Source: a virus
IMG/VR virus record: IMGVR_UViG_3300026536_000001
Coordinates: 1 to 59,586 of that record
Reading direction: 5' to 3' (one strand)
DNA: 59,586 nucleotides
Positions 3,157 through 59,341 of the stretch are shown in pieces. A program made the position numbers and the translations under genes. The notes beneath the pieces are model-generated. The model was not told the DNA's origin, searched no databases, and was given only the letters and a program-made list of their open reading frames with translations. Position 1 is the stretch's first letter, and each line of letters starts with the position of its first letter.

Positions 3157-3345
3157 TCTCGATTCGGAATGTTCGCTCGTGTCTCGCCTTCGTCTCGTTT
3201 CGTCACAAAGCGTTCCACTTCGCATCGGATCTCGAATTCGTCTCGCAACAAACCACGGCACTACGCCTCGCCCCACTACGCTTCTCGGATTCGTCTCGCC
3301 TCGCAACACGCCACACCACATCGCAGCGAGACACGACGCGACTTC
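3157..3345 (+). repeat. Pentamer-phased repeat array A
   Basis: Read on the + strand, headers CTCGR-MTTCR (first one CTCGC) start at 3183, 3231 and 3284, 48 and 53 bases apart, each followed by pentamers ending CA or CG. It fills the gap between the 323-residue and 55-residue minus-strand genes, so the mRNA carries the complement. The right edge contains the stop codon of the 323-residue gene in a header-like TGAAGTCG. Confidence 0.85.
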
Positions 3346-4315: not shown

Positions 4316-4577
4316 GAAACTCTCCTTTAGGTTGAATGTTGATGTGTAAAGCGAATCCGGCATGGGTGACCGGCTCATCGGCACCGCACTTGAAACAGAT
4401 GCCTCTTTCGCGAAGCAGGTTGGGTTCTTGGAAGGTACAACGCTCACCACACTGGGGACAGGTGAATTTGAAGTAGATGACGGCACACTCCGGACCACCG
4501 AATCGAGTGACGACATCATCGGCCCGCTTCAGGATTTCTTCGCGCGGCAGGTCGCCTTGACGCGGCTTGAAGTTCAT
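4290..4577 (-). CDS. Zinc-ribbon protein, 95 aa
   Basis: Start ATG 4577 has AGGAGA upstream. Two CxxC knuckles (CPQCGERC and CFKCGA) spaced by about 20 residues form a zinc ribbon in the middle. The protein overlaps the start of the downstream 323-residue gene by 26 bases. Zinc ribbons of this size in phage early operons are often nucleic-acid or protein adaptors; no specific role can be assigned. Confidence 0.65.
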   Translation of the reverse strand: MNFKPRQGDLPREEILKRADDVVTRFGGPECAVIYFKFTCPQCGERCTFQEPNLLRERGICFKCGADEPVTHAGFALHINIQPKGEFHAKDQSIE

Positions 4578-4646: not shown

Positions 4647-4835
4647 TCAAGTCTTTTTGACGAACAATAACCGGTATCCGAAAGGTGAGTGAAGTATAAT
4701 CGCCGGTCCGGCACCTCCAGATTCCGGCCACTCAAAGGCATCGCGGTGCTGGAGGAGACGTGCCTTTGCCGGTATCGACTCCAACAGTTCGTCCCACGCC
4801 AGCTTCGAGAGGACACACACGCGATCTTCCATCAT
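4647..4835 (-). CDS. Small hypothetical protein, 62 aa
   Basis: Begins with two consecutive ATG codons (4835 and 4832) that overlap the stop of the helicase gene, so translation is probably coupled. Content is mixed (CVLSKLAWDELLESIPAKARLL, then a beta-like C-terminus ending LLFVKKT). No recognised family. Confidence 0.6.
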   Translation of the reverse strand: MMEDRVCVLSKLAWDELLESIPAKARLLQHRDAFEWPESGGAGPAIILHSPFGYRLLFVKKT

Positions 4836-6478
4836 TCGTCCATTCCGAGGGCTTCGCGTTTGTCGAGGCTGTCATCATCGGCGATATCCTTCCGCGGCGT
4901 CCGTTCTGGCAGCTTCGTCAACGGCTTCGGTATCGCACTCACACTGAACACACTCTGGCTGAACCAACGCGGTGCCAGCTCCCGATTCTTTCCTAATAAC
5001 CACGATAAATGCGCGTCGGTGATAAACACCTCACACTGATCCGTCTCACTCCTCATCCCTCTCATGGTGGACTGGGCGAGTTCCTGTAAAGCTTCGGCAT
5101 TCATCCAATCCGGATCGTATCTGGTCTTGGCTTTAGCCAGCGGGGATTGGCTGGGCTGGAATGGCACCTTGGCCACAATAATAAACTCGCATTGACTAGC
5201 TGGGAAATCCCATCCGGTCCCGAACGACGGGGATACCAGGATCGCCGGTGCCGCGGCCTTCCTAAACTTATCCGCCGCTTCCGAAGCCGTGTCCGAGTCG
5301 GGATCGGTGGTATTCGCAATCATGAACCGGGCGTGCTGGGAATGCTGGAGCAAAAATTGTTGACGAGCGTAGGAGACCGTGTGGATCAATCCCTTCCGGT
5401 CCAATCTCGCGCCGATGATCTTATCGATATGCCGCACCCAGATGGCCAGCTCCTCCTCACTCGTCCTCCGATCCACTCTCACGGCCTTACCATTCGATCG
5501 CGGCGGGCAGAGATACACGGGCGAGCGTTCGGCCGGGAATATTCTCCCCCATTCCGTGAATTGTCCCTGGAGCCCGAGCTCCTCCAAGGTTCGTTTCTTG
5601 AGTGTCGCACTCATCAACACCACTCTCTGAACTCCCTGAATCAACAACCCGGTATATTTCTTAGGTGAGATCACATCCCAGGTCCAGGTCCTCCCGGCTG
5701 GCGTTGAGGCTTCGTACTCGAACACCCACTCCACTTTCGTCTTCCCCGGCAACGGCACCGGAAATCGCGCCAGCTTTTCCTCCAGCCTCTTCCAGCGTTT
5801 CAGCCGGTCTGTGCCTGTTGGAGTGAGGGCCCGGACACTGAGATCCTGAATGGCGATCCGGGCCAGTGGACGGATCTGAGCAACCCAGTGTTGCCAATCC
5901 GTGAGATTTCCGGTCTTGGGAGGAACCGTCACGATCCGCAACAAATGGAGTTCTCTATCGTCTATCGCGATCCTTAAATGATTGGCTAAATGTTTAACGG
6001 CATGAACCGCCTCATCCAGAATCAGCGTGTCGAAATTCCCGATCGCCTTGATCCCGGCCGCCAACCAATAACTGTAGTTCGACAACACCACAGGCGCGGC
6101 AGCAGCTTGTTGAACCGCGGCGACGTACCCCTCCGGGTTCGCACACCCACATCCCATCGGCCGTCCATCCTCACAGGTACGTGCCATGGGACACGGATAG
6201 TTCACCTGGCCTCGCACATCGACGAGATGATTGCGGAAGTCTTTGAGATATTGATCTTCTAAACCTTTCGTCGAAGTGAGAATCAGGGTTCGACCGGGCA
6301 GGCCGAGCTTCGCAATCGTCGCCGCCACCAGAGATTTCCCCGCTCCCGGCGGCAGTCCTAAACCCTGCACGGCGGAATCGCCGTATAAAGCCTGCTCGAC
6401 CGCTTCCAACTGCTCCGGCCGGTAGCTCTCATAGGAGAAACCGAGGTCTGCTGGCCGGAGGCCGTCCAGCGTGGTCAC
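4832..6478 (-). CDS. Fe-S cluster DEAD/DEAH helicase, DinG/XPD-like
   Basis: 548 residues. Walker A GLPPGAGKS at 41-49, DEAVH box at 155-159, and four cysteines at about 96, 102, 110 and 112 between them, where XPD/DinG helicases hold their 4Fe-4S cluster. The C-terminal RecA domain carries SFGTGWDFPASQ and a QSTMRGMRS motif VI-like segment. Such helicases move 5' to 3' on ssDNA and resolve forks, R-loops or recombination intermediates. The start is GTG 6478; the upstream array supplies only GTGAGACGAGATC, not a standard Shine-Dalgarno site. The next gene is coupled by overlap. Family assignment is strong; the substrate is unknown. Confidence 0.85.
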   Translation of the reverse strand: MTTLDGLRPADLGFSYESYRPEQLEAVEQALYGDSAVQGLGLPPGAGKSLVAATIAKLGLPGRTLILTSTKGLEDQYLKDFRNHLVDVRGQVNYPCPMARTCEDGRPMGCGCANPEGYVAAVQQAAAAPVVLSNYSYWLAAGIKAIGNFDTLILDEAVHAVKHLANHLRIAIDDRELHLLRIVTVPPKTGNLTDWQHWVAQIRPLARIAIQDLSVRALTPTGTDRLKRWKRLEEKLARFPVPLPGKTKVEWVFEYEASTPAGRTWTWDVISPKKYTGLLIQGVQRVVLMSATLKKRTLEELGLQGQFTEWGRIFPAERSPVYLCPPRSNGKAVRVDRRTSEEELAIWVRHIDKIIGARLDRKGLIHTVSYARQQFLLQHSQHARFMIANTTDPDSDTASEAADKFRKAAAPAILVSPSFGTGWDFPASQCEFIIVAKVPFQPSQSPLAKAKTRYDPDWMNAEALQELAQSTMRGMRSETDQCEVFITDAHLSWLLGKNRELAPRWFSQSVFSVSAIPKPLTKLPERTPRKDIADDDSLDKREALGMDE

Positions 6479-6480
6479 GA

Positions 6481-6600
6481 TCTCGTCTCACGACACGGCA
6501 CCTCACCGCGCCCCAACACACGACGCTTCGCGGCGATTCTCGTCTTCGTGGACGGCCTCCGATACTTCACCCTCATCGCGATTTCACTCTCATCGGGTCA
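6481..6600 (+). repeat. Pentamer-phased repeat array B
   Basis: Starting at 6481 there are eleven pentamers, nearly all NNNCR, then ATT, then the header-like CTCGT-CTTCG at 6539 (58 bases, 5n+3). A segment around 6533-6566 is closely related to 7270-7303. The array decays towards 6600, and the stop codon of the J-domain gene lies in its last part. Confidence 0.7.
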
Positions 6601-7207: not shown

Positions 7208-7225
7208 CCAGGGTTCTGCTCATGG

Positions 7226-7300
7226 CTCGGCTTCACCTCGCTTCGGAACGGGTCACGCCACAGCAGCGCGATTCTCGCCTTCAGGACAGCCTCCGATGTC
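7226..7300 (+). repeat. Pentamer-phased repeat array B2
   Basis: Header CTCGG-CTTCA at 7226 and header-like CTCGC-CTTCA at 7274, exactly 48 bases apart, joined by NNNCR pentamers and the triplet ATT. It occupies the gap between the XRE regulator and J-domain genes. Confidence 0.75.
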
Positions 7301-16430: not shown

Positions 16431-16696
16431 GCTTTATACGGTATAGGTCCGGTGTTGGATTCCCCGCCCACGCCGCCGCCCAGGTGCCTGTCTTGGGGGC
16501 TTTCCCATAAAGGGAACGGCAGATCGTCGCGGACAACACTGCCGCAAGCCCCCACAGGTTCATTGAGTATGTATCGACTTCGCCCCGATTCGCCTCACCT
16601 CGCGTCGTTTCTCGAATTCGTCTCGACTCGCCTCAGCCCGCCGCGCGGCGGCTCATTCCACCACTCGTCTTCACGAAGGAGCACACTCGATTCTGT
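16431..16696 (+). repeat. Gap with pentamer-phased repeat array C
   Basis: Headers at 16573 (degenerate, ATCGA-CTTCG), 16611 (CTCGA-ATTCG) and 16664 (CTCGT-CTTCA) are 38 and 53 bases apart, with NNNCR pentamers between. The left part (16431-16570) shows no gene or repeat. The array orientation matches leftward transcription from the endolysin operon. Confidence 0.75.
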
Positions 16697-17481: not shown

Positions 17482-17756
17482 TCGATATGAAGTGCTTCCT
17501 CCACCCGGATATTGCGGATCAGCTCCCCCTTCCCCATCAACTCCCTCAATCCATCGGCCTGTTCCCGAACCGACTCCTGATCCTCGGCTTCTCTTACAGC
17601 CCTCGTCCACCACGCCTCCGGTATGACGCTGGCGGGAACGATCGGTTCTTCCCAGTGGAAGGCTTCGGGATGGGAGATCGGGTTGACATACTCGAAGACG
17701 ACGCGATATTTGGTCACACCGTCCTCGTTCGACTTACAGCAGGCGGATAAAGCCAC
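17463..17756 (-). CDS. Hypothetical protein, 97 aa
   Basis: Overlaps the end of the endolysin gene by 43 bases. Beta-type first part (KYRVVFEYVNPISHPEAFHW) and a helical acidic second part. Function unknown; its position makes a lysis-related or membrane-associated role possible. Confidence 0.55.
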   Translation of the reverse strand: MALSACCKSNEDGVTKYRVVFEYVNPISHPEAFHWEEPIVPASVIPEAWWTRAVREAEDQESVREQADGLRELMGKGELIRNIRVEEALHIEWVEIS

Positions 17757-18109
17757 GTCACTCCGTCAGGTTTCGATAAATCCATATCCAGATGAATAAA
17801 GCTGAAGCCAATACCAACCCTTCTGAAACCTAACGCGATGGCATTTTCGACGATCACAAATCTTGTGTGACTATCCCTCGCTGTGATGTCAACTGCAAGG
17901 CCGTTTTCGTGCGAGGAGGAATCGACTCCTCCGACTTCTCGATTGTGTTCGGGTGTGCGATATCCACTACTGATGAAGAGTGGAAAGCCGCATTTGGACC
18001 GCAGCTCGTCGAGGAGCTTTACGAAATCGAGATTCATCTTCGAGCCGCTTCCAGGCGCATCTGGACTTGAGAATTCATCCGGTTGGAAATAGCGTATGCC
18101 TTCCCACAT
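17714..18109 (-). CDS. M15-family D-Ala-D-Ala peptidase endolysin
   Basis: 131 residues. Carries the zinc-site pattern of Peptidase_M15_3: SSHENGLAVDI with H67 and D74, and FIHLDMD with H106, plus SSGYRTPEHN at about 48-56. It cleaves peptidoglycan peptide cross-links. It has no signal peptide or cell-wall-binding domain, so it needs a holin, and the Pam3-gp28-like holin is on the opposite strand 2 kb away. First gene of a tightly overlapping leftward operon of six. A tail-associated lysin is less likely given this position. Confidence 0.85.
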   Translation of the reverse strand: MWEGIRYFQPDEFSSPDAPGSGSKMNLDFVKLLDELRSKCGFPLFISSGYRTPEHNREVGGVDSSSHENGLAVDITARDSHTRFVIVENAIALGFRRVGIGFSFIHLDMDLSKPDGVTWLYPPAVSRTRTV

Positions 18110-18164
18110 GCTGTCGATTCCTCCACCTTAGATTTGCCGGAGGCCGTTAGGGATTGGATAGATT

Positions 18165-18250
18165 CTCGGCTTCACCCCAGAACGGCTCGAAACGGCCCAC
18201 ATCGGCCCACATCGGCTCAGCGCGAAACGACCCTCGGCTTCATCCCGTCC
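18165..18250 (+). repeat. Pentamer-phased repeat array D
   Basis: Headers CTCGG-CTTCA at 18165 and 18233, 68 bases apart (13 pentamers plus three bases). All but one or two pentamers end CA or CG. It lies upstream of the leftward endolysin operon. Confidence 0.8.
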
Positions 18251-20690: not shown

Positions 20691-21415
20691 TGCCCAAAGG
20701 TTCACCTCCCGGCCGCCCTTTCAAGAAAGGAGACATCCCGGCCACCAAAGGCAAGCACCAAGTCCGTGGCTATTATCCGGGAACCCGTAAGCAGCGGGAG
20801 AAGGCCCCGCCCCCTCCACCTCCGACCGAGGGTCAGATCATGGACTCCATCGTCCAGAAGTTGAAGGTCGCCGACTCTCCTCTCGCTGTGGCTTTCTCTT
20901 CGCTGGATGGCGGCTGGCGCAACTATATCCGGTACGTGATCCAGGCGGCAAAAGAGGGCGACACTGAGATGCAGCGGTTCATGAACGCGCTCAATGGTCT
21001 TTCCGCACGCGAACGGTTGACGGTCTCTCCCGAAGATGTCTGTGATATGGCTGGTGTAAGTGTGGAGGATCTGATCGGGGCGGTCCTGCCGTTAATTTGG
21101 CGCTACTCCCGCTTGAGAAGTTCCATCGTTGCGGCCACTCACGATCCGGTCGTCCTCCGAACCACAGCGGCGTATGCGATGCGTCCGGATAATCAGCACG
21201 ATCGCGAGATCTTCTTGAAGGCGACAGGAACATTGCCAATTCCGAAAGGCAGTGTGACGGCTATTTTTAATTCCGCTGGTTCTGGGCCTCCCCCTCCGAC
21301 CCCGGCAGGAATCCTTCCCCCGGTATCTTCAGACATTTCAGATATGGAAGCTCTCGACGATAAATTTTCAGCTAGCAACCCCCTTGACACATCATCCAGT
21401 TCGGATGAGAATTGA
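20690..21415 (+). CDS. Candidate small terminase subunit, 241 aa
   Basis: The N-terminal GRPFKKGDIPATKGKHQ resembles the basic lead of phage DNA-binding packaging proteins. A helical middle with an HTH-like stretch (SPEDVCDMAGVSVEDLIGAV) and a Pro/Ser/Asp-rich tail follow. It lies immediately before TerL, the normal TerS slot. No clear family match, so the role is inferred from position and HTH. Its stop TGA is part of the header of the following repeat array. Confidence 0.5.
   Translation: MPKGSPPGRPFKKGDIPATKGKHQVRGYYPGTRKQREKAPPPPPPTEGQIMDSIVQKLKVADSPLAVAFSSLDGGWRNYIRYVIQAAKEGDTEMQRFMNALNGLSARERLTVSPEDVCDMAGVSVEDLIGAVLPLIWRYSRLRSSIVAATHDPVVLRTTAAYAMRPDNQHDREIFLKATGTLPIPKGSVTAIFNSAGSGPPPPTPAGILPPVSSDISDMEALDDKFSASNPLDTSSSSDEN
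21384..21412 (+). promoter_or_regulatory. Putative promoter upstream of terL
   Basis: TTGACA (21384-21389), 17-base spacer, GAGAAT (21407-21412): perfect -35, weak -10. Located inside the end of the upstream gene, facing terL. Confidence 0.4.
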
Positions 21416-21531
21416 AGCCGAGAGGCGAAGCGCCGCGTGCCGTCGTGGGACGTAGTGACGTGAAGCGCCGTGAGCCGCGCTGGCGTGTTGTGCCGTGACG
21501 TGAACCGCAGTGGGGTGAGACGAATTCGAGT
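21413..21531 (-). repeat. Pentamer-phased repeat array E
   Basis: On the minus strand, headers start at 21530 (CTCGA-ATTCG) and 21422 (CTCGG-CTTCA), 108 bases apart: 21 pentamers all ending CA or CG plus the triplet CCT. On the mRNA strand it begins exactly at the stop codon of the candidate small terminase (TGA AGCCGAG). Confidence 0.85.
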
Positions 21532-21542
21532 CCTGACCTGCG

Positions 21543-23696
21543 ATGTACAGCGAAAAAGTCACACAAGCCAAGATCGCGTTCGCGTTGAGGACCGGCTTCT
21601 TGAAAACGGAGCCGGTCTTCCACACCCGCAGCGAGTGTGATGCCGCAGTCTCCCACCTGAAGTCCAACTGGGACGAAGACTCACAGACCTGGAAGCGTGA
21701 GTTAACTCGCGAAGAGATCGCGTTTATAAAAAACGAAAGGTTTCTCTGTCGCGTCAGTTATAATTATTGGAAAACGCGGTACTGCTGGATCAAGTCCCGT
21801 GAAGATAAGCCCATCCGTTACACTCCATGGGTTAGTCAAACAATTCTGACAGACATATTTTCCGAGCACGAGATCGAAGGCATCGCGATCGAGTTACAGG
21901 CACTTAAGGCTCGACAGCTCGGAGTCTCCCGCGAAGTCTCTCTGGCGCAGCTCCATAGAGTTCAGTTCTTCAGTCACATCAACGCCATGATGGCTTCCTC
22001 TGCTCCAGCAAAGACGGCGAAACTCGGCGATATGTTAGCCTTCACGTTGGGTTATCAGCCGCACTGGTTACTGCCTCGTTTCGCTTTCGGCCCCCGTGAG
22101 CAAGCCCAGCACTTCGGCGGGGAGTGGTTCGAGCTAGAGACAGGCTCCTCACTCACACTCCAGTCCGGATCTCAAGTCACTGGTATCGCCCGCGGCACAA
22201 CCCCTACCGTTATTCATATTAGCGAGCTTGCCGAGTTCGAGTACCAAGGTCTCGGCCCCGAAGAAGTCATCGACTCATCTTTATTCCGCGCAGTCCATCC
22301 CTCCGCTCGTGTCTTCATGGTTCTGGAATCCACCGCACTAGGCCAGTTCAATTGGTGGCACAAGAAGTGGCTCTCCTCCAAGTCCGGCTGGCCGACACGC
22401 CGCTCCCGCCTGCGTCCGGTCTTCCTTCCATGGTTTACCGGAAGTGCGCGTTTGGGCTATATATACCCAGAACAAGGATTTTTGGACCGCTCTCCCGTCC
22501 CCGCCAACTACTCTCCCGCACTCTGGGCTCTCGAACACGCCAAGCGAGCCGAAGATTACGTCAAGTCGAACGATACTCTGCGGGCGTACATGGGAAGCAA
22601 CTGGACGATGCCTCGCGAACAAATCTGGTTCTACGAAGTCGAGCGCCAGCAAGCCGTTAACGAAAATCGCTTGAATAAATTTTTTCAAGAGATGCCAAGT
22701 AGTGATGACGAGGCTTTTCAAAGTACGAACGTCTCGGTCTTCTCCACTGAAACCATCACCGCGCACCGCGACCGCACCCGCGCTCCACTCGGCGTCTACG
22801 GCTTGATCGGCCCGGATATGTCCCCCCGCACGGTCCTCTTCTCCCGCGCTCACATCGATCCCAACTCTAAACCGATTGTGATCGATTATCCGTGGGGCGC
22901 TCACCCGCACCAATACGAACTGGTCCCTCTACGCTGGGACGGTTACGCGACCGATGACGGTTTAGACAAACTCTACATTTGGGAGATGCCCGAAGACGGC
23001 CAGATCTACGGCCTCGGTGTGGACACCGCCGACGGTATAGGTAAGGACCGCTCAACCATAGAGGTATTAAGAAAAGGCTCTCCTCTTCAACGGGCGGGTC
23101 AGTGTGCGGAGTTCGCCTCGGATAAGATCAACGCTTTGGACTTGACCCCATACATGATGGCTTTGGGAGCTCTCTTCAGTGTCAAAGACACGGATGGGAA
23201 TCGTCGTCAGTGCCGTGCGGCGATTGAATGCCGGGGCAAGGGTGATCTCTCCCAATTGGGCATGAGAATCGATGGCTGGAGAAATTTTCACCCTTGGCAA
23301 CGTATTGATTCTAAAACCATTTCTCCCGACAAAGTAAGCAAGTTAGGGGTATTTACAAACGAATGGTTTCGTCAATCGATTCAAGAATATCTGGTGAAAT
23401 TCCTTCGCGATGAAGAGGTTGAAATTCTCTCGCCGTTCCTTGTGAGTGAAATGCAGTCCCTTGAGTCTCGTGAGGACGTGCAGAGCTTCCGCGCGACATA
23501 CGGCGGCCACGATGACAGAGTGATGTCGCTCGGTTTTATCCTCATTTCGTTATATCAGTACGAGCCCAATCGTCCTGTTGCTGCACTGACACAGACGAAG
23601 CAATCGCGGGGGCAAGTTCGATTTGAACGCAAATACGCTTCCTGGCGACCCAACGATCAGGAGCGCCTGACTACTTTAGATGACGCCAGCGTATGA
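21543..23696 (+). CDS. terL: Terminase large subunit
   Basis: 717 residues. N-terminal ATPase with VIHISELAEF (about 222-231) as the Walker B/coupling segment and FMVLESTALGQ as motif III-like. The C-terminal RNase H-type nuclease has GVDTADGIGKDRST at about 490 and GGHDDRVMSL at about 655, placing the acidic residues for two-metal cleavage. It cuts concatemers and drives DNA into the prohead with the portal. The Walker A loop is divergent. ATG 21543 lacks a Shine-Dalgarno site; the array header ends 12 bases upstream. Confidence 0.9.
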   Translation: MYSEKVTQAKIAFALRTGFLKTEPVFHTRSECDAAVSHLKSNWDEDSQTWKRELTREEIAFIKNERFLCRVSYNYWKTRYCWIKSREDKPIRYTPWVSQTILTDIFSEHEIEGIAIELQALKARQLGVSREVSLAQLHRVQFFSHINAMMASSAPAKTAKLGDMLAFTLGYQPHWLLPRFAFGPREQAQHFGGEWFELETGSSLTLQSGSQVTGIARGTTPTVIHISELAEFEYQGLGPEEVIDSSLFRAVHPSARVFMVLESTALGQFNWWHKKWLSSKSGWPTRRSRLRPVFLPWFTGSARLGYIYPEQGFLDRSPVPANYSPALWALEHAKRAEDYVKSNDTLRAYMGSNWTMPREQIWFYEVERQQAVNENRLNKFFQEMPSSDDEAFQSTNVSVFSTETITAHRDRTRAPLGVYGLIGPDMSPRTVLFSRAHIDPNSKPIVIDYPWGAHPHQYELVPLRWDGYATDDGLDKLYIWEMPEDGQIYGLGVDTADGIGKDRSTIEVLRKGSPLQRAGQCAEFASDKINALDLTPYMMALGALFSVKDTDGNRRQCRAAIECRGKGDLSQLGMRIDGWRNFHPWQRIDSKTISPDKVSKLGVFTNEWFRQSIQEYLVKFLRDEEVEILSPFLVSEMQSLESREDVQSFRATYGGHDDRVMSLGFILISLYQYEPNRPVAALTQTKQSRGQVRFERKYASWRPNDQERLTTLDDASV

Positions 23697-23917
23697 ACGA
23701 AAAGGTCTTTCAATCCAGTCACTTGCAACGCGGCGTTTACGATCCGGCGACGGGGAACCTAGAGATCGAGTTCGTCAATGGTCAACGCTATACTTACGAG
23801 GGCGTGCCGCAAGAGAAATGGGAGGCCCTGACACGAGCGGTATCCCCCGGAAAGTTCTTGCATAACTGGATCAAAGGATCGCATAATTCTCGACCGATGG
23901 GCACCTCTGAGACCTGA
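23693..23917 (+). CDS. KTSC-domain protein
   Basis: 74 residues matching the KTSC fold: SSHLQRGVYDPATGNLEIEF, GQRYTYEGVPQEKWEAL, then SPGKFLHNWIKG. KTSC is a small domain frequent in phage genomes with no established biochemistry. It overlaps the end of terL by four bases; its stop TGA opens array F. Confidence 0.8.
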   Translation: MNEKVFQSSHLQRGVYDPATGNLEIEFVNGQRYTYEGVPQEKWEALTRAVSPGKFLHNWIKGSHNSRPMGTSET

Positions 23918-24036
23918 AGCCGAGGCTCGATTTGGAGCGTGTCGCGACGGGTTGAAGCGGGGTGAGACGAATCCGAGTAGCGATGTGTAGCGTAGCGAGG
24001 CGTCGTGGTTTGATCTGGCCTGCGGTGAAGCCGAGT
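23908..24036 (-). repeat. Pentamer-phased repeat array F
   Basis: On the minus strand, headers start at 24035 (CTCGG-CTTCA), 23977 (CTCGG-ATTCG) and 23924 (CTCGG-CTTCA), 58 and 53 bases apart, with NNNCR pentamers throughout. In the mRNA sense it begins at the stop of the KTSC gene and ends just before GGAGG of the next gene. Confidence 0.85.
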
Positions 24037-24052
24037 AGCGGAGGACTGAGGG

Positions 24053-24724
24053 GTGCCCGTCGTAGACTACCGCTGTTCCAGTTGCTTCAGAGATGACTCT
24101 CATTATTATCCGTTAGCCTCGTTTCCATACCCCGAGGTTATCCAGTGCCCATTTTGCGCTTCGCAGTCCGAACGCAACTACATGGCCGGTTCTCCATCAG
24201 TCGGTTTTTCTCCTATAGTCATACATATCCGAAAAGATACTGGTGAAGTCTCGATCCCAGGCCGAGTGGATGATCCGGTTGAAAAAGGCTACGAACGAGT
24301 CGAAATACGAGACTTTAGAGCCTATGAAAAATTCCGCCGTCACGTCGAGTCTGTTGAGAAAGAGAAGTCGCAGTTCTTCATGGAAGCGTCGAATGCTTTC
24401 TTTGATGATGTCCGGCGCGAACATCGCCAATCCCAACGTACTCGTATCGAACAAGCCATCCGTCAAGGAGGCTATGAAGCCACCTATATCGATGAAGACG
24501 GCAACGAAAAGAAGCGATGGGCCCCTATAACCCAACGTGCTCGGTTCCTCTTCGATCTCGCGTGTAAGTATACGGACCGTACTCGTGATGAGCGCCGTAA
24601 GAAGCTGGCATCTGGCTCCCCCAACTTCCACTCCCGCGCCCTCGAACACAGGTCCTCTGAGGCTAGTGTCGTTTCGGGTGAAGCCAAACGCGCCTCCCTC
24701 TTCTTCCGCAAGGGCAAGCCGTGA
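24053..24724 (+). CDS. Zinc-ribbon structural-region protein, 223 aa
   Basis: GTG 24053 with GGAGG eight bases upstream. The N-terminus is an FmdB-like zinc ribbon (YRCSSCF and VIQCPFCASQSE). The rest is charged and helical (KEKSQFFMEASNAFFDDVRR). Proteins of this layout often lie between terL and portal in related phages, perhaps aiding assembly. Overlaps the portal start by GTGA. Confidence 0.7.
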   Translation: MPVVDYRCSSCFRDDSHYYPLASFPYPEVIQCPFCASQSERNYMAGSPSVGFSPIVIHIRKDTGEVSIPGRVDDPVEKGYERVEIRDFRAYEKFRRHVESVEKEKSQFFMEASNAFFDDVRREHRQSQRTRIEQAIRQGGYEATYIDEDGNEKKRWAPITQRARFLFDLACKYTDRTRDERRKKLASGSPNFHSRALEHRSSEASVVSGEAKRASLFFRKGKP

Positions 24725-26793
24725 GATCCGACACCGGTAATTTTTACTTGGCCCCACCGATACTCAACCAGGATGGCGAGACTCCCACTACTGACGAACT
24801 CCTCGGCTGGACAAAAGAGTTCCGTCAACAAGCGCAGTCATACCTAAGGCTGCAACCAGCGCACCCGTACATCCAAGATGGTCTCGACCTCATCAACGGA
24901 GACTTCGCTAAATCGACCGTCTCGACTCTCTCCAACGCCCGCACCGACTTGACCGTACGTAACGAAAAAGAACTGATCGCCGCTCAGACCAACCTCCGCA
25001 TCATCCCGGCCATCACCACCTCCATCGAAGCCTTCAAAGAGCAAGGCGTTTTATTAGATAAAAGTTGGATGTGGTGGCAGCAGAAAACCTTCGCCGATCG
25101 CGTGATCCGTCAAGCCTGGCAGAACGCCGTGGCTTTGGGCACCGGCTACTGTTCGATCGGCTACGACCCGGACTACTACTGTGCTGGTAAAGGCGAGATC
25201 GCCCTCCGTTCTCATGGCCCTCTCGATATCCTCCCGATCGGCCTCCCGCACGACCACAGTATCCAAAAGGCATATGCGGTCGCCATCAAAGTCCCCACGC
25301 CCTACCACCAAGTCATCGAAATGTTCCCGGACTTCCGCGATCAGATCCGCCCCACCACCGAGATGAAGGGCCGCGGCACCGTCATGGCCCAATCGGTCAA
25401 GTTCGCTTCGGCCGTCCTCAAACGTTTCGGTCCGACCGCGATTCAGGAACGCGAGCCGATGCCGTGGGCGATGACGGATTTATTTTACATTTATATCGAC
25501 GACCGCACCGTCAACCGCACCGGCAAAACCATCGCCATGGGCGACCCCCACACCTCCTGGGAGTACTTCGTCCCTTCTGTCGGCGATCTGATCGAGACCG
25601 GCCGCGACGACGAAGGCAAGTCCGTTTACAAACAAGCGACTCCGGAAGACTGCCGCTTCTATCCGAACCGCCGCCGGATCATCTGCACCGATAATTTAAT
25701 CCTCACTCCCGACCCGACTCTCCAGGTCAACCCGGCCTGGCACGGCAAGGTCCCCGTCGTTCAATTCCGCGCCGATGACTGGCCTTGGATGTTTCTCGGT
25801 TTCCCCCTCTCCAAAGCCGGAATGCTGCTGGAAAAAGCCAATACCGAGCTCCTGCGCGGCATCGTCGATATGATGAACGTGCGCCTCTCCCCACCGACCG
25901 GCTACGATCGTAACACCATGGCCCGCTCCCTAGCCGAAACCATCAATCTGCGCGTCCCCAACCAACGCCTCGGCCTCGATTACGGCCTGGGTGGCGACCA
26001 ATTCAAACCCCTCCTCCCGGTCGAGTTCCTGAACGTCCCCTCCAACATCCCGGAATTGATCACTCAAAACGAAGCCCGTCAGACGCACTACATGGGAGTG
26101 GCCGACGCTTCGGCCCTGACCCGTGCCCGCCAGCTCCCGGCCGGAGATTCCACCGACCGCTTATTAGAAGCCCTCGGTCCTCTGGTTAAAGATATGTCCC
26201 GGAACATGGAGCTCTCGGTCACCGGGATTGGCGAGATGTGGGTTCCGCTCGTGTTTCAGTGGTGGAAGGCGGGGAAGCGTTTCCAGATCTTTGGTGAAGA
26301 CGGACTCGTTGAAGAGGATATCGATTTCAACCCCGGTTCTCTGGTCCCTCAGGACGTTCTCTCTCTCCCCAAACACTCCTCCTACTTTGAACGCGCCCGG
26401 AAACATTGCGCTCATTTCCACTATGCGATCGAGCCGTACAGCCTGCACGAACTCAATTCGATGACACGGAAGATGGCCTTCCTCCAGCTTTCCCGCTCCG
26501 GCTTCCCGATTTCCTGGAAGACCCTAGCCCGAGTATGGGATGTCAAGAACTTCGACTTCGACCCCAAAGATACCGATCCGTCCAGCCCGAATTTCGGCAA
26601 GAGCCTCCAGGGAGAGTTCCCGATCTGGCTGGCCCAACAAGAGATTATGGCTCGAATCGCAATGGCCACGGGAGGCGGAGGCGGTAAAGGGAAAGGTCCT
26701 CAAGGACGTCCTCCTACGGGTCAGCAGCCGCCTTCTTTGGAGCAAAAAGGCGGGTTTGGTGGGCGCTCCACCATCCGCGAATCCAGGAGGTAG
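24721..26793 (+). CDS. Portal protein
   Basis: 690 residues starting at GTG 24721. Size, place after terL, and features such as WMWWQQKTFADRVIRQAWQN, GTGYCSIGYDPDYYC and the long helical segments before a glycine-rich tail (GGGGGKGKG) fit large podovirus-type portals. It would form the dodecameric channel at the capsid vertex and dock the terminase. Sequence alone does not show the clip or wing domains. Confidence 0.75.
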   Translation: MRSDTGNFYLAPPILNQDGETPTTDELLGWTKEFRQQAQSYLRLQPAHPYIQDGLDLINGDFAKSTVSTLSNARTDLTVRNEKELIAAQTNLRIIPAITTSIEAFKEQGVLLDKSWMWWQQKTFADRVIRQAWQNAVALGTGYCSIGYDPDYYCAGKGEIALRSHGPLDILPIGLPHDHSIQKAYAVAIKVPTPYHQVIEMFPDFRDQIRPTTEMKGRGTVMAQSVKFASAVLKRFGPTAIQEREPMPWAMTDLFYIYIDDRTVNRTGKTIAMGDPHTSWEYFVPSVGDLIETGRDDEGKSVYKQATPEDCRFYPNRRRIICTDNLILTPDPTLQVNPAWHGKVPVVQFRADDWPWMFLGFPLSKAGMLLEKANTELLRGIVDMMNVRLSPPTGYDRNTMARSLAETINLRVPNQRLGLDYGLGGDQFKPLLPVEFLNVPSNIPELITQNEARQTHYMGVADASALTRARQLPAGDSTDRLLEALGPLVKDMSRNMELSVTGIGEMWVPLVFQWWKAGKRFQIFGEDGLVEEDIDFNPGSLVPQDVLSLPKHSSYFERARKHCAHFHYAIEPYSLHELNSMTRKMAFLQLSRSGFPISWKTLARVWDVKNFDFDPKDTDPSSPNFGKSLQGEFPIWLAQQEIMARIAMATGGGGGKGKGPQGRPPTGQQPPSLEQKGGFGGRSTIRESRR

Positions 26794-28086: not shown

Positions 28087-28395
28087 ATGGCGGTCGAGAC
28101 CCCATCCACGCCGGACCCTCAATCCGGAGCGTATGGTGGTGTGCGGCAAATGACCGGTGACGATGGTATGGCCGGTGCGTCTCCATCTCCAGTCCAAGCC
28201 GATCCGGCACAGATGCTCGCCGGAGTCACGTCTCAACTTCGACAAGCCGACCAAGCCGTTAGCGAGATTGCCCGTGCTTTTCCGCAGGCTGCTGCCGAGG
28301 CCAGACGCGCGCGTTCGGCACTACGTTCGCTGCTTCAGAAAGTTGTCAGCGAACCCGGAGGAGGCGCTCCTGCCGCGCCTGTAGGTGAGGTATGA
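28087..28395 (+). CDS. Hypothetical protein, 102 aa
   Basis: Starts one base after the previous stop. Disordered Pro/Gly-rich ends flank a helix (AQMLAGVTSQLRQADQAVSE, ARRARSALRSLLQKVV). Located before the candidate scaffold gene; possibly a scaffold or head-assembly accessory. Confidence 0.6.
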   Translation: MAVETPSTPDPQSGAYGGVRQMTGDDGMAGASPSPVQADPAQMLAGVTSQLRQADQAVSEIARAFPQAAAEARRARSALRSLLQKVVSEPGGGAPAAPVGEV

Positions 28396-28442
28396 AAGGT
28401 TTGAGTCGCGAGCGGCCCCATCGGTCAGGGCCGCCCTTGGAA

Positions 28443-28580
28443 CACGATCTCACATCGCGACACGACAACTCACGGCGTTTCACGACAACGCGCGCCACGA
28501 CACCGCACGACGATACGCTTCTCGGATTCGTCTCGCATCAACTCATCTCGCCACGACCCGGGTCGGCCCTCGTATTCAGT
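28443..28580 (+). repeat. Pentamer-phased repeat array G (reverse orientation)
   Basis: On the + strand, pentamers in phase from about 28443 to the header CTCGG-ATTCG at 28521, and a header-like CTCGT-ATTCA at 28569 (48 bases). It shares a 23-base segment around the header with array A (3278-3300 region). It is the only array whose C-rich strand is the coding strand. The remaining gap (28396-28442, 28581-28675) holds a GCGGCCC/GGGCCGC hairpin (28412-28434) and nothing else I recognise. Confidence 0.75.
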
Positions 28581-28675: not shown

Positions 28676-29659
28676 ATGCCTGTAGACACCAAAAGAGTTC
28701 AAGAATTGATCGATGAGTTAGGTCTCGAAGGCGCGGACAAAGACTATTTCGCCCGCGTTCTCACCACCAATGAGAAGGCGGGCGTTGCTTTTACCGGGCA
28801 GAGAGAGAGGCACGATAGGTTTACGCAGAAGACTCAAGAACTCTCTCAGAAAGAGAAAGAGTTGGAACAACGTGCCAATCAGCGCGACTTGGAGTTAGCG
28901 CAACAGTTAAACGCGGCGGAGGATCGCATCCGCAAAATCATGGCCGACTATGAGACTTCCGAGATCTCTCGTACTAAAGCAGAGACACTTCTTCGCCGTG
29001 TCAAAGAGATTTACAATTTGAGTGACGAAGACATACCGAAGCTCTCCGAGCCTCCCAAGCCCAAAGACACTCCTCCTCTCGACATCGACAAGAAGTTCAG
29101 CGAGTTCAAGGACACACTCCTCAAGGAACTGGCTCCCAACTTCCGCGCCCTCCCTCGAATCAACGTCATTCAGGCAGAGATTTTTGAGAGGCACCGCGAG
29201 CTTACCGGCAAGCGTCTCACCCAGCGCGAAATGGAAGAACTGATGGCCGAATCCATGAAAGACAACGGTCCGACTCTCATGGAAGCTTGGCGCGAAAAAT
29301 ACAAGATCGCCGATATCGAGAAGAAGAAGGAACGCGAGGAGTGGTCCAAAGAGGACCGGCAGAAGTGGGAAGACGAACAGAAAGCCAAGAACAGCGAAGA
29401 AGCGATGCGGCAAGTCCGCTCCACTCCCGACGGCCGCACTCAACACCTCTCTCCGGTCTTCCGCGAATACAAACGGCACGAAGACGGCACCTTCGCTTCT
29501 CAGCAAGCTCCGGATAAGGACAAGAACCGTCCGGCCGACAGAGTACCGGCAGTGCAGAATGGACAGAAGTTGAGCGGAGCCGAACGAGCGGCGAAGAGCT
29601 TCATCGAAAGAAGACAGGCGGGAGTGCCTCTGGGGAAAGAGGCTGTTGGGAAAACCTAG
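28676..29659 (+). CDS. Coiled-coil protein, candidate scaffold
   Basis: 327 residues, highly charged, with long coiled coils (QKTQELSQKEKELEQRANQR; EKKKEREEWSKEDRQKWEDE). Its place between portal and major capsid is the standard scaffold slot. It has no visible protease domain, so scaffold exit may not need self-cleavage. ATG 28676 preceded by GGAGG. Confidence 0.65.
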   Translation: MPVDTKRVQELIDELGLEGADKDYFARVLTTNEKAGVAFTGQRERHDRFTQKTQELSQKEKELEQRANQRDLELAQQLNAAEDRIRKIMADYETSEISRTKAETLLRRVKEIYNLSDEDIPKLSEPPKPKDTPPLDIDKKFSEFKDTLLKELAPNFRALPRINVIQAEIFERHRELTGKRLTQREMEELMAESMKDNGPTLMEAWREKYKIADIEKKKEREEWSKEDRQKWEDEQKAKNSEEAMRQVRSTPDGRTQHLSPVFREYKRHEDGTFASQQAPDKDKNRPADRVPAVQNGQKLSGAERAAKSFIERRQAGVPLGKEAVGKT

Positions 29660-45189: not shown

Positions 45190-45323
45190 CGTGTTAGGTT
45201 ATTTCTGAAGACGAGGTGCGACGTGTTACGCCCGTGATCCGAACCGATATGAGGTGAAGTCGAGCAGTGATGTGCGATGCAGCGATACGGGACGAAGCCG
45301 AGCAACTAACATAACCTAACACG
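45190..45323 (-). repeat. Pentamer-phased array H inside a 13-bp inverted repeat
   Basis: CGTGTTAGGTTAT (45190-45202) and ATAACCTAACACG (45311-45323) are perfect complements. On the minus strand, headers start at 45302 (CTCGG-CTTCG) and 45264 (CTCGA-CTTCA), 38 bases apart. No target duplication is visible. In RNA the ends would pair and close a loop of about 108 bases in the leader of the next gene. Confidence 0.75.
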
Positions 45324-50139: not shown

Positions 50140-50640
50140 TCGACTTCACCTCACTTCATCCATAACCCTATTTGCGGTGGCCGGACTCGATACCGGCTGG
50201 TGGCGCTTCCGCTGGCAATGATTCGGATTTCTTAATCGCCGTATCAAGGAGCCTCTCTTCGGCGAAACGCCAGTCTGGACCCTTTAACCCTGTCCGGTAC
50301 TCCGGTTACCTGCTCCTAACGGTTTGCGCTCACTCTCCATTCGCTCCCCCTACTGCTAGAGGGACCTCGCTAGGTCTGTGTGTCCTGTCCACACCGCACC
50401 GCAAACTCGACTTCATCTCACCACATTCCGGCTCGCCGCAAAACTCGGCTTCGTTTCAGCTCGTCGCAAACCACTACACACCAAGACGATTCTCGAATTC
50501 GTCTCGCTTCGTGACAACTCGTAACACCGCAATGCGATTCTCGGATTCGTCTCGTTCCAGATCGTCTCGCCTCACGTCGCCACAAATCACCACTCGGCTT
50601 CGTCTCGTCTCGACTCGGCTCACATCGCCGCTCGGCTTCA
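50139..50640 (+). repeat. Pentamer-phased repeat array I plus degenerate stretch
   Basis: A header CTCGA-CTTCA at 50139, then a non-repetitive stretch (about 50160-50390), then headers at 50406, 50444, 50492, 50540, 50593 and 50631 at 38, 48, 48, 53 and 38 bases, all 5n+3. The last header includes the stop of the next minus-strand gene. The middle stretch shows a short protein-like minus frame (ending GIESGHRK at about 50168) with no start, perhaps a gene remnant. Confidence 0.85.
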
Positions 50641-51550: not shown

Positions 51551-51589
51551 AAACGTTTCCTATTCGTATCGGGGCGACCCCCTCTGGTA

Positions 51590-51670
51590 CTCGCCTTCGT
51601 CTCAGACCACCTCGCAACGCGGCACCTCGCGGCACGGCACGTCACCGCACAACTCGGCTTCATCCCTTCG
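51590..51670 (+). repeat. Pentamer-phased repeat array L
   Basis: Headers CTCGC-CTTCG at 51590 and CTCGG-CTTCA at 51653, 63 bases apart, with NNNCR pentamers between. The second header contains the stop codon of the DNA polymerase gene. Confidence 0.8.
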
Positions 51671-56199: not shown

Positions 56200-56460
56200 C
56201 TATTTCGGGAGTAGATTTTCCGGGAAGTCGATCTTCCGTATCTTACTGTTCATCCACATCTTAGCTACCTCGAATGGTAGGCGGATGTTGAGATAGACCG
56301 CCCCTTTCAGGGTTGTGTTTACTCCATCTGCTGTTTTTGGATCGATCTCCCCGTTCAATTGAAGATTCAAAACTTCTTCGTAAACATCACGATGGTTCTG
56401 AACCGTCTTCAACGGCATGAATCGTTTCTTCTTATCATCGGCTTTGCTTTCGTCAGGCAT
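56200..56460 (-). CDS. Small hypothetical protein, 86 aa
   Basis: ATG 56460 with AGGATAGGAGT upstream. A lysine-rich start, then a helical segment (HRDVYEEVLNLQLNGEIDPK) and TLKGAVYLNIRLPFEVAKMW. Function unknown; sits directly downstream of the longest repeat array. Confidence 0.6.
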   Translation of the reverse strand: MPDESKADDKKKRFMPLKTVQNHRDVYEEVLNLQLNGEIDPKTADGVNTTLKGAVYLNIRLPFEVAKMWMNSKIRKIDFPENLLPK

Positions 56461-57235
56461 ACTCCTATCCTTTCTTTGAATTCGGTACTCGGCTTCGTCT
56501 CAGATCACAGCACTCCAGCGCAAATCGATACTCGAATTCGTCTCGTCTCGACACGCGGCAACGCTCAACGAATCACCCCGGCCCTCGGCTTCATCTCAAC
56601 ACGTTACGTTGTGTCACACCTCGGCTTCACGTCGTCTCGCTTCGTATCGCGACACCGCTCTGCGCCTCTTGTATTCATCCCAGCACACTTCAGCGCAACC
56701 GCACAGCACGTCTCGGATTCACATCGCCTCACTGCAAGACGCAACACAACACATCGCCTCTCGACTTCGCCTCAGCTCATGTCACCGCGCATCACGACAG
56801 ATCGACTCTCGGCTTCGATTCACAACAAGCTCGACTCCGTTCATCGCGGATCGTCTCTCGGATTCATCGCAGCTCAACGCGCTTCACACCAACTCACGCC
56901 ACCACGCGACAACTCTCGGATTCACATCGGCGCACACCAGCGCAACACGTATCTCGGATTCACCTCACCACGACACTCGTCGCTACGCTTCACAACACAA
57001 CTCGAATTCGCCACAACTCACTTCGAAACAACGCACCACGCCGCGCGACACGTCTCGAATTCGTCTCACAACACTGCAACACACACCATCACGTCACACG
57101 TCGCAACTCGGATTCGTCTCGGTTCGTTTACGTATCAGGGCGTCCCCTATTCTCAATACTCGAATTCGTCTCGCGCCACACCAGCGCAACTCGCGTCGAA
57201 ACGCGGCACCTCGCTACGTCTCTCGTCTTCGAGCT
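56461..57235 (+). repeat. Pentamer-phased repeat array J (longest)
   Basis: Headers start at 56488, 56531, 56584, 56620, 56668 (degenerate), 56712, 56760, 56808, 56857, 56915, 56953, 57001, 57054, 57107, 57159 and 57222. Gaps are 43, 53, 36, 48, 44, 48, 48, 49, 58, 38, 48, 53, 53, 52 and 63: eleven of fifteen equal 5n+3 and the others carry small indels. Long open + strand frames through it arise because stops are rare in this pattern, not from coding. Confidence 0.9.
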
Positions 57236-57937
57236 TTAGCTCGCTTCTTCAATGGTAGCGATATACTTTCCTCCGCCCGCTGATCTCTCCCCACCGTAGC
57301 CGTGCGTCCCTCCATAATTCATCAGCGTACTCAGATCCTTGATACTCACGGAGGTTCCCAGGATCTTCAATCTGAATTTGATCATGGCGGGCCGCACCAC
57401 TTCAAAGGACTTCAACGCATTGATGGGTTCTCCTCTCGGTCCTCTGGCGTGGACTGGCTTGTCCAACACTTCGTCGGCCGCAGTAACCGGAGTCCCGTCT
57501 GGCCGCAGGATCGGAATATACTCGTTGGCCTCATCCAAATATGCCCCGTTCACTACCCTTGTTGCAAAGCTCCGTTCACCTTTTATTTTCCCTATAAATT
57601 GCGCTGAGATCACCCTCGCACAATCCTTCAAATGCGCCCGTATCGTATCTTCCCGCACCACCAGCACCTCGTTCTTTTTCTGAAACACTCTTAACGGAAT
57701 GGCCGCTGTTGTTGGATTGGTCAGCGTATCGAGAACCTCCTCGGTGATCTCATCAATACTCTTTCCTCCTGCTGGCATCACGTCCGGAGCTCTACTGTCC
57801 AACCAGGGTCCGACCAGATTCCCATTGGCAGGCACAGACCCGCACAAGTCCCGGATGAAGTCCCACCTCACGTTATAAACGGTCCAGATCGAATCGTTTC
57901 TCTCTTTCGTTTTCGTTTCTTTCTCGGTAATACTCAT
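57236..57937 (-). CDS. Hypothetical protein, 233 aa, glycine-rich C-terminal loop
   Basis: ATG 57937 preceded by AGGAGAACC. Alpha/beta mixture with FATRVVNGAYLDEANEYIPI and VVRPAMIKFRLKILG, ending GTHGYGGERSAGGGKY, which resembles the Gly-rich loop of RAMP/RRM-type proteins (GxGxxRxxGxG). First gene downstream of a consensus promoter, so probably abundant. Possibly a nucleic-acid-binding protein; no firm family. Confidence 0.6.
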   Translation of the reverse strand: MSITEKETKTKERNDSIWTVYNVRWDFIRDLCGSVPANGNLVGPWLDSRAPDVMPAGGKSIDEITEEVLDTLTNPTTAAIPLRVFQKKNEVLVVREDTIRAHLKDCARVISAQFIGKIKGERSFATRVVNGAYLDEANEYIPILRPDGTPVTAADEVLDKPVHARGPRGEPINALKSFEVVRPAMIKFRLKILGTSVSIKDLSTLMNYGGTHGYGGERSAGGGKYIATIEEAS

Positions 57938-58016
57938 TGTTGGTTCTCCTGTTTTTATTGGCGACGTTCCGTTCCGTCTATGATGTACCGGTATCTCCCC
58001 CGGTGTAGGGAGTCTA

Positions 58017-58044
58017 ATTATATGCCCACAGTCGATATTGTCAA
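58017..58044 (-). promoter_or_regulatory. Consensus sigma70-type leftward promoter
   Basis: On the minus strand TTGACA (58044-58039), 16-base spacer, TATAAT (58022-58017): both perfect. It gives a leader of about 75 bases to the 233-residue gene. CACTTGACA is shared with the 13.38-kb promoter, and TATAATTAGACTC with the XRE gene's start region. Confidence 0.85.
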
Positions 58045-58232
58045 GTGTCCACTTCAACCTTGCCATCGTGTAGACGCACGACGATTTTCAAAAACTCGGA
58101 ATTCTTCGTTTCGGCCATTATGGTTTTCGTATCCAATAAAAGACTCTTCCCGCTGCCATAGAGAAGATACAGCTTATCCAGATGTTCAATCAGGCTGTGA
58201 AACTCCGCGCGGACCTCCTGTTCAAAAGTCAT
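58041..58232 (-). CDS. Small hypothetical protein, 63 aa
   Basis: Coupled to the ERCC4 nuclease gene by ATGA. A helical start (EQEVRAEFHSLIEHLDKLYL) and a beta-type end (FLKIVVRLHDGKVEVDT). Its end overlaps the -35 box of the downstream promoter. Function unknown. Confidence 0.6.
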   Translation of the reverse strand: MTFEQEVRAEFHSLIEHLDKLYLLYGSGKSLLLDTKTIMAETKNSEFLKIVVRLHDGKVEVDT

Positions 58233-58990: not shown

Positions 58991-59341
58991 CTCGACTCTC
59001 GGCTTCGTCTCGCTACAACTCGCGTCGGCACACTTCTCGGCTTCGTCTCGTCTCGAAACACTGCGACTCGTTGCGCTACGGGTCGTCTCTCGGATTCACC
59101 TCACGCCAGCACGAATCGACACATCTCACCACACTACTCGGATTCACCCCAACACGTCTCGTCACAACGCACCACAGCACAACACGGACCGACACTCGGA
59201 TTCACCTCACAGCAAGTCGTAACACAACACGCCGCAACGGTTCTCGACTTCACCCCACCACGCTCCACTCCACATCACGTCGCTTCTCGACTTCAATCTC
59301 CGCCTTACGGCTCACGGATAAATGAGTCCGCGTAAAAGCTC
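58991..59341 (+). repeat. Pentamer-phased repeat array K (cleanest)
   Basis: Headers start at 58998, 59036, 59089, 59137, 59195, 59243 and 59286, separated by 38, 53, 48, 58, 48 and 43 bases: all 5n+3. Until the last header practically every pentamer ends CA or CG. Triplets before headers are CTT, TCT, CTA, ACA, GTT and CTT. The remaining 59305-59341 shows nothing else. Confidence 0.92.

What the first reader, a model, noticed from the sequence alone, without database searches (positions are those of the whole stretch)
58998..59305. A strictly phased pentanucleotide repeat grammar: CTCGR-MTTCR-(NNNCR)n-NNN
In array K, after each 10-base header, the DNA can be cut into 5-base words that almost all end in C followed by A or G, while the first three bases vary freely. 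Three spare bases precede the next header, so header distances are 38, 53, 48, 58, 48 and 43. Over all arrays I measured 38 distances by eye and 34 equal 5n+3 (chance about one in five each). This is neither a tandem repeat, nor CRISPR, nor simple low-complexity DNA. Evenly spaced flexible CR steps every half helical turn could ease bending or wrapping, or each word could be one footprint of a multimerising protein; both are inference. I know of no described element with this structure.
Basis: seen in the sequence. Interest (0 to 1): 0.95.

Follow-up and report, generated by a model that had tools for sequence, protein, structure and literature searches.

The report
Phage guide-RNA arrays beside a CRISPR-like protein
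The odd five-letter DNA 'grammar' is real: it looks like arrays of guide RNAs used by uncultured phages together with a CRISPR-type (RAMP) protein, a variant of the recently described VIPR system, and when decoded the guides spell pieces of genes of related rival phages and, in sister viruses, of a bacterial anti-phage (CBASS) enzyme.

Summary
The window holds 14 arrays (array K is one) with words NNNCR and spacers CTCGR; distances are 5n+3. The same grammar, with different words, occurs in dozens of unrelated uncultured viruses. A protein found next to it is a new RAMP family: its predicted fold matches Csm3/Cas7. Fetching homologs by protein alone gave 67 loci: 63 carry an array beside the gene, 1 a degenerate one, 3 end at the contig edge; every array found lies antisense, so the transcript would read YGNNN.

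This is the architecture of VIPR (bioRxiv 2026): RAMP protein plus pentanucleotide-repeat guide RNAs (YNNGG). Here the repeat is YGNNN with YCGAG spacers. Joining the three free bases of each word, without skips, gives codon-phased coding DNA. Window guides decode to diverged homologs of the virus's own terminase, portal, helicase and others, each array lying about 0.6 kb from its own ortholog. A guide shared by three other viruses decodes to the ENFADK(W) motif of CBASS cyclases.

DNA bending is not supported. Best reading: RNA-guided weapons against rival phages and host defence. Transcription and binding are inferred. Novelty: variant of a known kind; the preprint's supplement could not be read.

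The parts
56480..57126 (+). array M (two blocks, 56480-56623 and 56699-57126; a further unit runs 57159-57231), between the RAMP gene and the small helical gene
57236..58066 (-). array-associated RAMP (Vipr-like) gene; conserved domain about residues 30-246 of 57236-57976; G-rich loop YGGTHGYGGERSAGGGKY
56200..56460 (-). small all-helical protein (86 aa) directly after array M in the transcript; relatives sit beside arrays in at least 4, possibly 6, viruses; candidate accessory gene
3175..3354 (+). array A; guides decode to LKTGYLPY, LFQSSFM, LLNATIRD = homologs of ORF 3344..4519
6473..6548 (+). array B; guide decodes to LDGLRPHDFG = homolog of the helicase start (4832..6478)
7218..7288 (+). 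array C (one unit)
16570..16673 (+). array D
18162..18247 (+). array E; guide decodes to GFRSMGMGFSF = homolog of 17714..18109 (GFRRVGIGFSF)
21395..21548 (-). array F; 20-triplet guide decodes to LPWFVGNARLGFVYPEHGF = homolog of terminase 21543..23696
23907..24051 (-). array G; guides decode to AIECRGKG (terminase) and RAITDLYYI (portal 24721..26793)
28440..28578 (+). array H; guides decode to IDELGFERADREY (28676..29659) and APVGEV-stop (28087..28395); the one array whose RNA sense runs against both neighbouring genes
45212..45305 (-). array I
50403..50640 (+). array J (6 headers)
51579..51662 (+). array K' (3 headers)

Best explanation
The arrays are multi-guide RNA genes of a phage-borne, VIPR-type RNA-guided system. 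Shown by computation: the array lies next to, and in the same transcriptional direction as, a gene for a RAMP protein (single ferredoxin-like domain, G-rich loop, Csm3/Cas7-like predicted fold); arrays and gene occur together and are absent together in the window's relatives; the free triplets, joined without gaps in each unit, are codon-phased coding sequence that decodes to homologs of named genes. Inferred, by analogy with VIPR and class 1 CRISPR: the array is transcribed as 5'-NNN(YGNNN)n-YGNNK-YCGAG units; RAMP subunits bind one 5-nt repeat each, holding YG and presenting the free bases; the header (YGNNK-YCGAG) acts as a handle or processing site like a crRNA repeat; each subunit reads a 3-nt step of double-stranded target DNA, with RNA position 5 opposite the wobble base; binding silences the target. 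In the window the guides are aimed at homologous genes of related, competing phages, and the small dispersed arrays sit next to the virus's own, diverged copy of the target, so weapon and resistant allele travel together. In sister viruses some guides are aimed at CBASS cyclase genes, that is, at host (or rival-borne) defence.
For: Protein linkage: 24 of 31 array loci carry the same protein family, median 172 bp from the array; in most loci without it the array lies at or near the end of the fetched sequence. Reverse test, protein motifs only: 67 loci, 63 with an array beside the gene, every such array on the opposite strand; L163 has a degenerate array; L120, L161, L162 end at the contig edge. 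Fold: AF2 pLDDT 88; the 50 best of 106 PDB hits with E<=0.001 are, as far as the entry titles tell, all type III, VII or III-derived CRISPR complexes, mostly Csm3/Cas7. Remote similarity to SUSP1-type Vipr, hhalign E 2.8e-4. Code: junction dinucleotides of joined triplets match own-genome neighbours z=6.0, against 0.1 for a 1-base gap; stop codons spanning junctions 117 vs 171 expected in one frame, z=-5.6, none depleted in the other; codon-usage score z=6.8 vs -0.5. Targets: window guides score 91, 49, 45, 42, 42, 42, 39 against own proteins; best of 111 shuffled guides 39, next 33. Identity to the own ortholog at RNA positions 3, 4, 5: 83%, 81%, 39%. Array-to-ortholog distance mean 0.63 kb vs 11.9 kb permuted, p=5e-5. 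Relatives without the RAMP gene have no arrays. Guide shared by L103/L107/L142: 21-nt exact hit in a CBASS cyclase and 20/20 matches in Rhodococcus genes annotated nucleotidyltransferase, cyclase by PADLOC E=2e-94.
Against: No transcription, RNA processing, binding or silencing has been seen for this family. Sequence similarity to known Viprs is remote (hhalign probability 41%). The pentamer differs from YNNGG, and the 3' tail with pseudoknot described for one VIPR clade was not looked for beyond Rfam (no match). No perfect target was found for any window guide: the exact wobble-free pattern of the terminase guide has no hit in IMG/VR, and the best relative has 34/40 matches. Only about 10 of 37 window guides decode recognisably. 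The statistics treat related guides as independent after removing duplicates. Scans for 21-nt patterns also hit a tail protein and a short ORF, so single hits are not proof by themselves.
Confidence: 0.92

Rival explanations
1. DNA-level element: evenly spaced flexible CR steps ease bending or wrapping, or are footprints of a DNA-binding filament.
For: Period of about half a helical turn and strict phase within a unit.
Against: Strand-specific C rather than any YR step; fixed orientation relative to the gene in every locus fetched by protein; phase broken by 3 at each spacer; free bases carry codon-phased, gene-like sequence; a RAMP (RNA-binding fold) protein is the only widely shared neighbour.
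Confidence: 0.03
2. RNA decoy or scaffold (TRAP-like or sponge): the array RNA soaks up a host or phage RNA-binding protein; the free bases have no guide role.
For: Periodic fixed YG, long arrays, RNA-binding fold of the neighbour.
Against: Free bases decode to homologs of specific genes and to CBASS cyclase motifs; units are bounded by repeated headers as guide arrays are.
Confidence: 0.03
3. Guides regulate the virus's own genes next to the dispersed arrays rather than rival genes.
For: Arrays lie next to the own ortholog of their decoded target, 82% identity at RNA positions 3 and 4.
Against: Amino-acid differences and serine codon class switches (AGT/TCC against TCG/AGT) between guide and own gene show that the guides match a diverged homolog, not the own gene; sister viruses target genes such as CBASS cyclases.
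Confidence: 0.15
4. A system related to VIPR but with a different decoding rule: all three free bases are read, so the target is contiguous (0-nt skip). This is a sub-case of the best explanation, not exclusive of it.
For: Junction statistics favour adjacency; position 5 gives the right amino acid in 35 of 40 split codon boxes, 25.4 expected if random; position 5 matches 6/7 in the CBASS cyclase genes.
Against: Position 5 is G in 45% and sits opposite the wobble base, exactly where VIPR skips; target-derived bases at position 5 could be inherited without being read.
Confidence: 0.45

Closest known systems
VIPR (Viral Interference Programmable Repeat; Vipr protein + vrRNA), PMC13142463, bioRxiv 2026.04.26.720920 v2
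   Same: Phage-borne; single small RAMP with G-loop; long intergenic RNA arrays beside the gene; 5-nt tandem repeat with fixed and hypervariable positions; target read in 3-nt steps with the skip/third base at the codon wobble; targets are competing phages.
   Different: Repeat is YGNNN instead of YNNGG (fixed bases YG, not GGY); units of about 33-68 nt bounded by YCGAG plus a virus-specific 10-nt header, in arrays of up to about 1.5 kb; dispersed mini-arrays beside own orthologs; protein only remotely similar to SUSP1-type Vipr; not found in isolated phages or plasmids; a CBASS cyclase among the decoded targets. Whether it is one of the preprint's seven types ('GGY/NN or a related consensus', 'staggered arrays') cannot be told without its supplement.
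Type III/VII CRISPR backbone RAMPs (Csm3/Cas7)
   Same: Predicted fold and G-loop; protein next to an array of repeats and variable segments.
   Different: No Cas10, Cas5, Cas6 or Cas1 seen; repeat and guide interleaved every 5 nt; no contiguous spacers of 30-40 nt.
TRAP (trp RNA-binding attenuation protein) leader sites
   Same: Period of about 5 nt in RNA (from memory).
   Different: TRAP fixes the triplet and leaves 2-nt spacers free; here 2 nt are fixed, 3 free and meaningful; unrelated fold.
Free-standing homing endonucleases and marker exclusion in phages
   Same: Weapon genetically linked to its own resistant allele and aimed at a rival's homologous locus (from memory; functional analogy only).
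   Different: RNA-guided; no nuclease identified here.

Membership tests
VIPR | Single RAMP protein with RRM core and G-rich loop | tested here: met
   AF2 model and Foldseek, top hits Csm3/Cas7; conserved YGGxHGYGGERSxGEGRY
VIPR | Member of the Vipr protein clade | tested here: inconclusive
   hhalign to 7 SUSP1-type Viprs E 2.8e-4, probability 41%; no tree with the preprint's sequences possible
VIPR | Long intergenic arrays of tandem pentanucleotide repeats beside the gene | tested here: met
   63 of 67 protein-recruited loci, 1 more degenerate, 3 truncated
VIPR | Repeat consensus YNNGG (GGY/NN) or a related consensus | tested here: inconclusive
   Consensus is YGNNN with position 5 G 45%; SUSP1 and 5 other phages show YNNGG by the same reading; the preprint allows 'a related consensus' but its fig. 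S17 was not readable
VIPR | Target read in 3-nt steps, skip base at wobble | tested here: met
   Decoded guides are codon-phased with RNA position 5 at the wobble in both orientations; whether position 5 is skipped or read is open
VIPR | Targets in competing phages | tested here: met
   Guides decode to homologs of own phage genes; exact target phage not found
VIPR | vrRNA transcribed and co-purifying with the protein | not testable with these tools
   Needs RNA sequencing and pull-down
VIPR | vap accessory gene | tested here: inconclusive
   86-aa all-helical protein beside arrays in at least 4 viruses, two more by weak profile hits; relation to vap1-6 unknown
CRISPR-Cas | Repeats separated by contiguous spacers, cas1 and other cas genes | tested here: not met
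   Interleaved 5-nt code; the RAMP is the only gene shared by more than a few array loci

The most novel reading that the evidence does not exclude
A second noncontiguous guide code: RNA of YGNNN repeats in which all three free bases are read, so that each 5-nt repeat specifies three contiguous target bases; phages use it both as allele-linked weapons placed beside their own resistant copy of the target and as RNA-guided silencing of host CBASS.
Probability: 0.4. Interest if true: 0.93.

Novelty: new variant of a known kind. Interest (0 to 1): 0.85.

Why it matters
It gives a second, independent instance of RNA guides that interleave fixed protein-contact bases with target bases, in a large family of uncultured viruses. 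Because the code can be read by eye, natural targets can be named from sequence alone: rival phages' terminase, portal and helicase genes, and a CBASS cyclase. That makes testable how phages use RNA guides against each other and against host defence, how guides are acquired (they sit next to the own ortholog of the target), and how class 1 CRISPR RAMPs arose. It also offers a natural comparison for which positions a RAMP must fix (GGY or YG) to hold a guide.

Tried and rejected
Bacterial genomes: 45 single matches in 85k genomes, all chance or 15-bp coding repeats (Luteimonas etc.), no arrays. Isolated phages and plasmids: no homolog of the protein and no array-like DNA. Direct nucleotide search for targets in the first 1.07 Mb of fetched viral DNA: no enrichment at 0-, 1- or 2-nt skip. 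Shared or reverse-complementary guides between viruses as a code test: too few once header triplets are dropped. Exact wobble-free pattern of the terminase guide: 0 hits. A decoded L126 guide (IYARKSTDQ, reminiscent of the serine-recombinase motif from memory) had only weak hits in phages and plasmids. Rfam: nothing in window or seven loci. Pfam and PHROGs: the RAMP family is unknown to both. L083 and L094 arrays are probably G-rich coding repeats, not members. The array finder also fires on 15-bp coding repeats, so its score alone is not proof. CTCGC/CTCGT spacers are not confined to array ends.

Full report
The observation. Array K (58998-59305) has headers at exactly the stated distances and phase. 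Header plus seven NNNCR words has 22 exact matches in the window and none in 100 shuffles. A scorer for the grammar finds arrays throughout the window. On inspection the 5n+3 rule is the same as saying: free triplets NNN are joined by CR, and once per unit by CTCGR.

Other viruses. Scans of IMG/VR with header+words, words+header+words and the generalised CTCGR(NNNCA)7 brought in some dozens of contigs with arrays of about 200 to 1,500 bp whose words differ but whose grammar is the same. The first word after CTCGR is nearly fixed within a virus and differs between viruses (CTT/ATT, CTA, CGT, CAT, AGG), so each unit is a 10-bp header plus a guide. No bacterial genome showed an array, with the caveat that only the MTTCR header was scanned there.

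The neighbour. Arrays usually lie between genes of one direction, in the orientation that a transcript would read YGNNN (H in the window is an exception). One protein family is shared by 24 of 31 array loci, median 172 bp away; no other family reaches more than 5 loci. As the array searches could bias this, I fetched loci by protein motifs alone: 67 loci, 63 with an array by the gene, all on the opposite strand; one more has a degenerate array with CTTGA-like spacers (L194); three end at the contig edge. The family is new to Pfam and PHROGs. Its AF2 model (pLDDT 88) has the beta-alpha-beta-beta-alpha-beta order and G-rich loop of RAMPs; the best 50 PDB matches, judged by the entry titles, are CRISPR complexes, mostly Csm3/Cas7 of type III and VII.

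Known counterpart. The preprint PMC13142463 describes VIPR: a phage RAMP plus vrRNAs of YNNGG repeats whose NN pair with dsDNA with a 1-nt skip at codon wobble, aimed at competing phages. I re-read its SUSP1 locus and five further phages here and saw the YNNGG repeats. The profile of our family aligns with those Viprs over the C-terminal half at E 2.8e-4.

Decoding without targets. With triplets of neighbouring words joined directly, the dinucleotide across the join follows the virus's own adjacent-dinucleotide preferences (z=6.0; 41 of 55 viruses above their own null), not those at distance 2 (z=0.1). Stop codons across the join are depleted in one frame only (117 vs 171), and codon usage fits that frame (z=6.8) but not the other. 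The null shuffles words within a virus, so each word is kept intact.

Decoding to genes. The window guides then translate to pieces of recognisable homologs of the window's own proteins: terminase LPWFVGNARLGFVYPEHGF (own LPWFTGSARLGYIYPEQGF; relative L175 LPWFVGSAKLGYVYPEKGF), IDELGFERADREY, LKTGYLPY, LFQSSFM, AIECRGKG, RAITDLYYI, GFRSMGMGFSF, LDGLRPHDFG, KTMEEWG, and APVGEV with its stop codon. In nearly all of these RNA position 5 falls on the wobble base, whichever strand is coding. Matches to the own gene are 83% and 81% at positions 3 and 4 and 39% at position 5; serine codons of the two unrelated classes occur opposite each other, so the guide copies a diverged homolog. Position 5 still carries information: in split codon boxes it gives the right amino acid 35 of 40 times against 25.4 expected.

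Where the arrays sit. The distance from array to own ortholog of its target averages 0.63 kb, 11.9 kb if permuted. Array H lies between the two genes it decodes to. The four long relatives of the window (terminase 44-70% identical) lack both the RAMP gene and every array. I infer that a small array next to a resistant allele, aimed at the rival allele, is inherited with that allele.

Host defence. Guides of L103, L107 and L142 share decoded ENFADK/EDFADK. The 21-nt contiguous pattern hit four IMG/VR stretches; one (L198) is a CBASS CD-NTase (PADLOC cyclase E 6e-140) with the motif NPVNPTENFADKW. Independently, the 33-nt L142 guide searched in 7.3 Gb of plasmids gave 20/20 matches in Rhodococcus plasmids, annotated nucleotidyltransferase where the record carries annotation; that protein is a PADLOC cyclase (E 2e-94) with NPACDGENFADKW. 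The L103 guide matches both genes at 14/14 of positions 3 and 4 and 6/7 of position 5. The other hits were a tail protein (L195/L197) and a short ORF (L196), which may be chance.

What is shown and what is inferred. Shown: the grammar, its spread, the linkage with a RAMP fold, the codon-phased content and the decoded homologs. Inferred: transcription, unit processing at YCGAG, RNA binding, DNA targeting and silencing, and whether position 5 is read. I file it as a VIPR-type system, most likely a variant with a different repeat; the preprint's supplement may already contain it.

Noticed in passing
window 1-59586: Array order in contig 3300005186 shows the window's two ends are adjacent (A about 3.5 kb from N), so the genome is circular or circularly permuted.
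   Followed up: partly
window 58229-58990 (-): ERCC4-domain nuclease gene (Pfam E 3e-9) directly next to array N; not shared with other array loci.
   Followed up: no
window 56200-56460 (-) and L071, L081, L089: Family of about 80-aa all-helical proteins directly beside arrays; possible accessory gene.
   Followed up: partly
L126, L115, L087, L074 arrays: Decoded guides read IYARKSTDQ, GIYARKS, LLGGREGIG and VTDPPYG, reminiscent of serine recombinase, Walker A and DNA methyltransferase motifs.
   Followed up: partly
L076/L080/L145/L146, L144, L155 (L068): In these viruses the array lies just upstream of the RAMP gene instead of downstream.
   Followed up: no
window 11592-12104 and 40537-41115: Two ORFs whose sequences look like HNH homing endonucleases (by eye).
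   Followed up: no
Genome-contig loci L021, L022, L025, L030 and others (Luteimonas, Lysobacter): Long coding tracts with 15-bp repeats (CTTCGAGGCGTTCCG) that mimic the grammar.
   Followed up: partly
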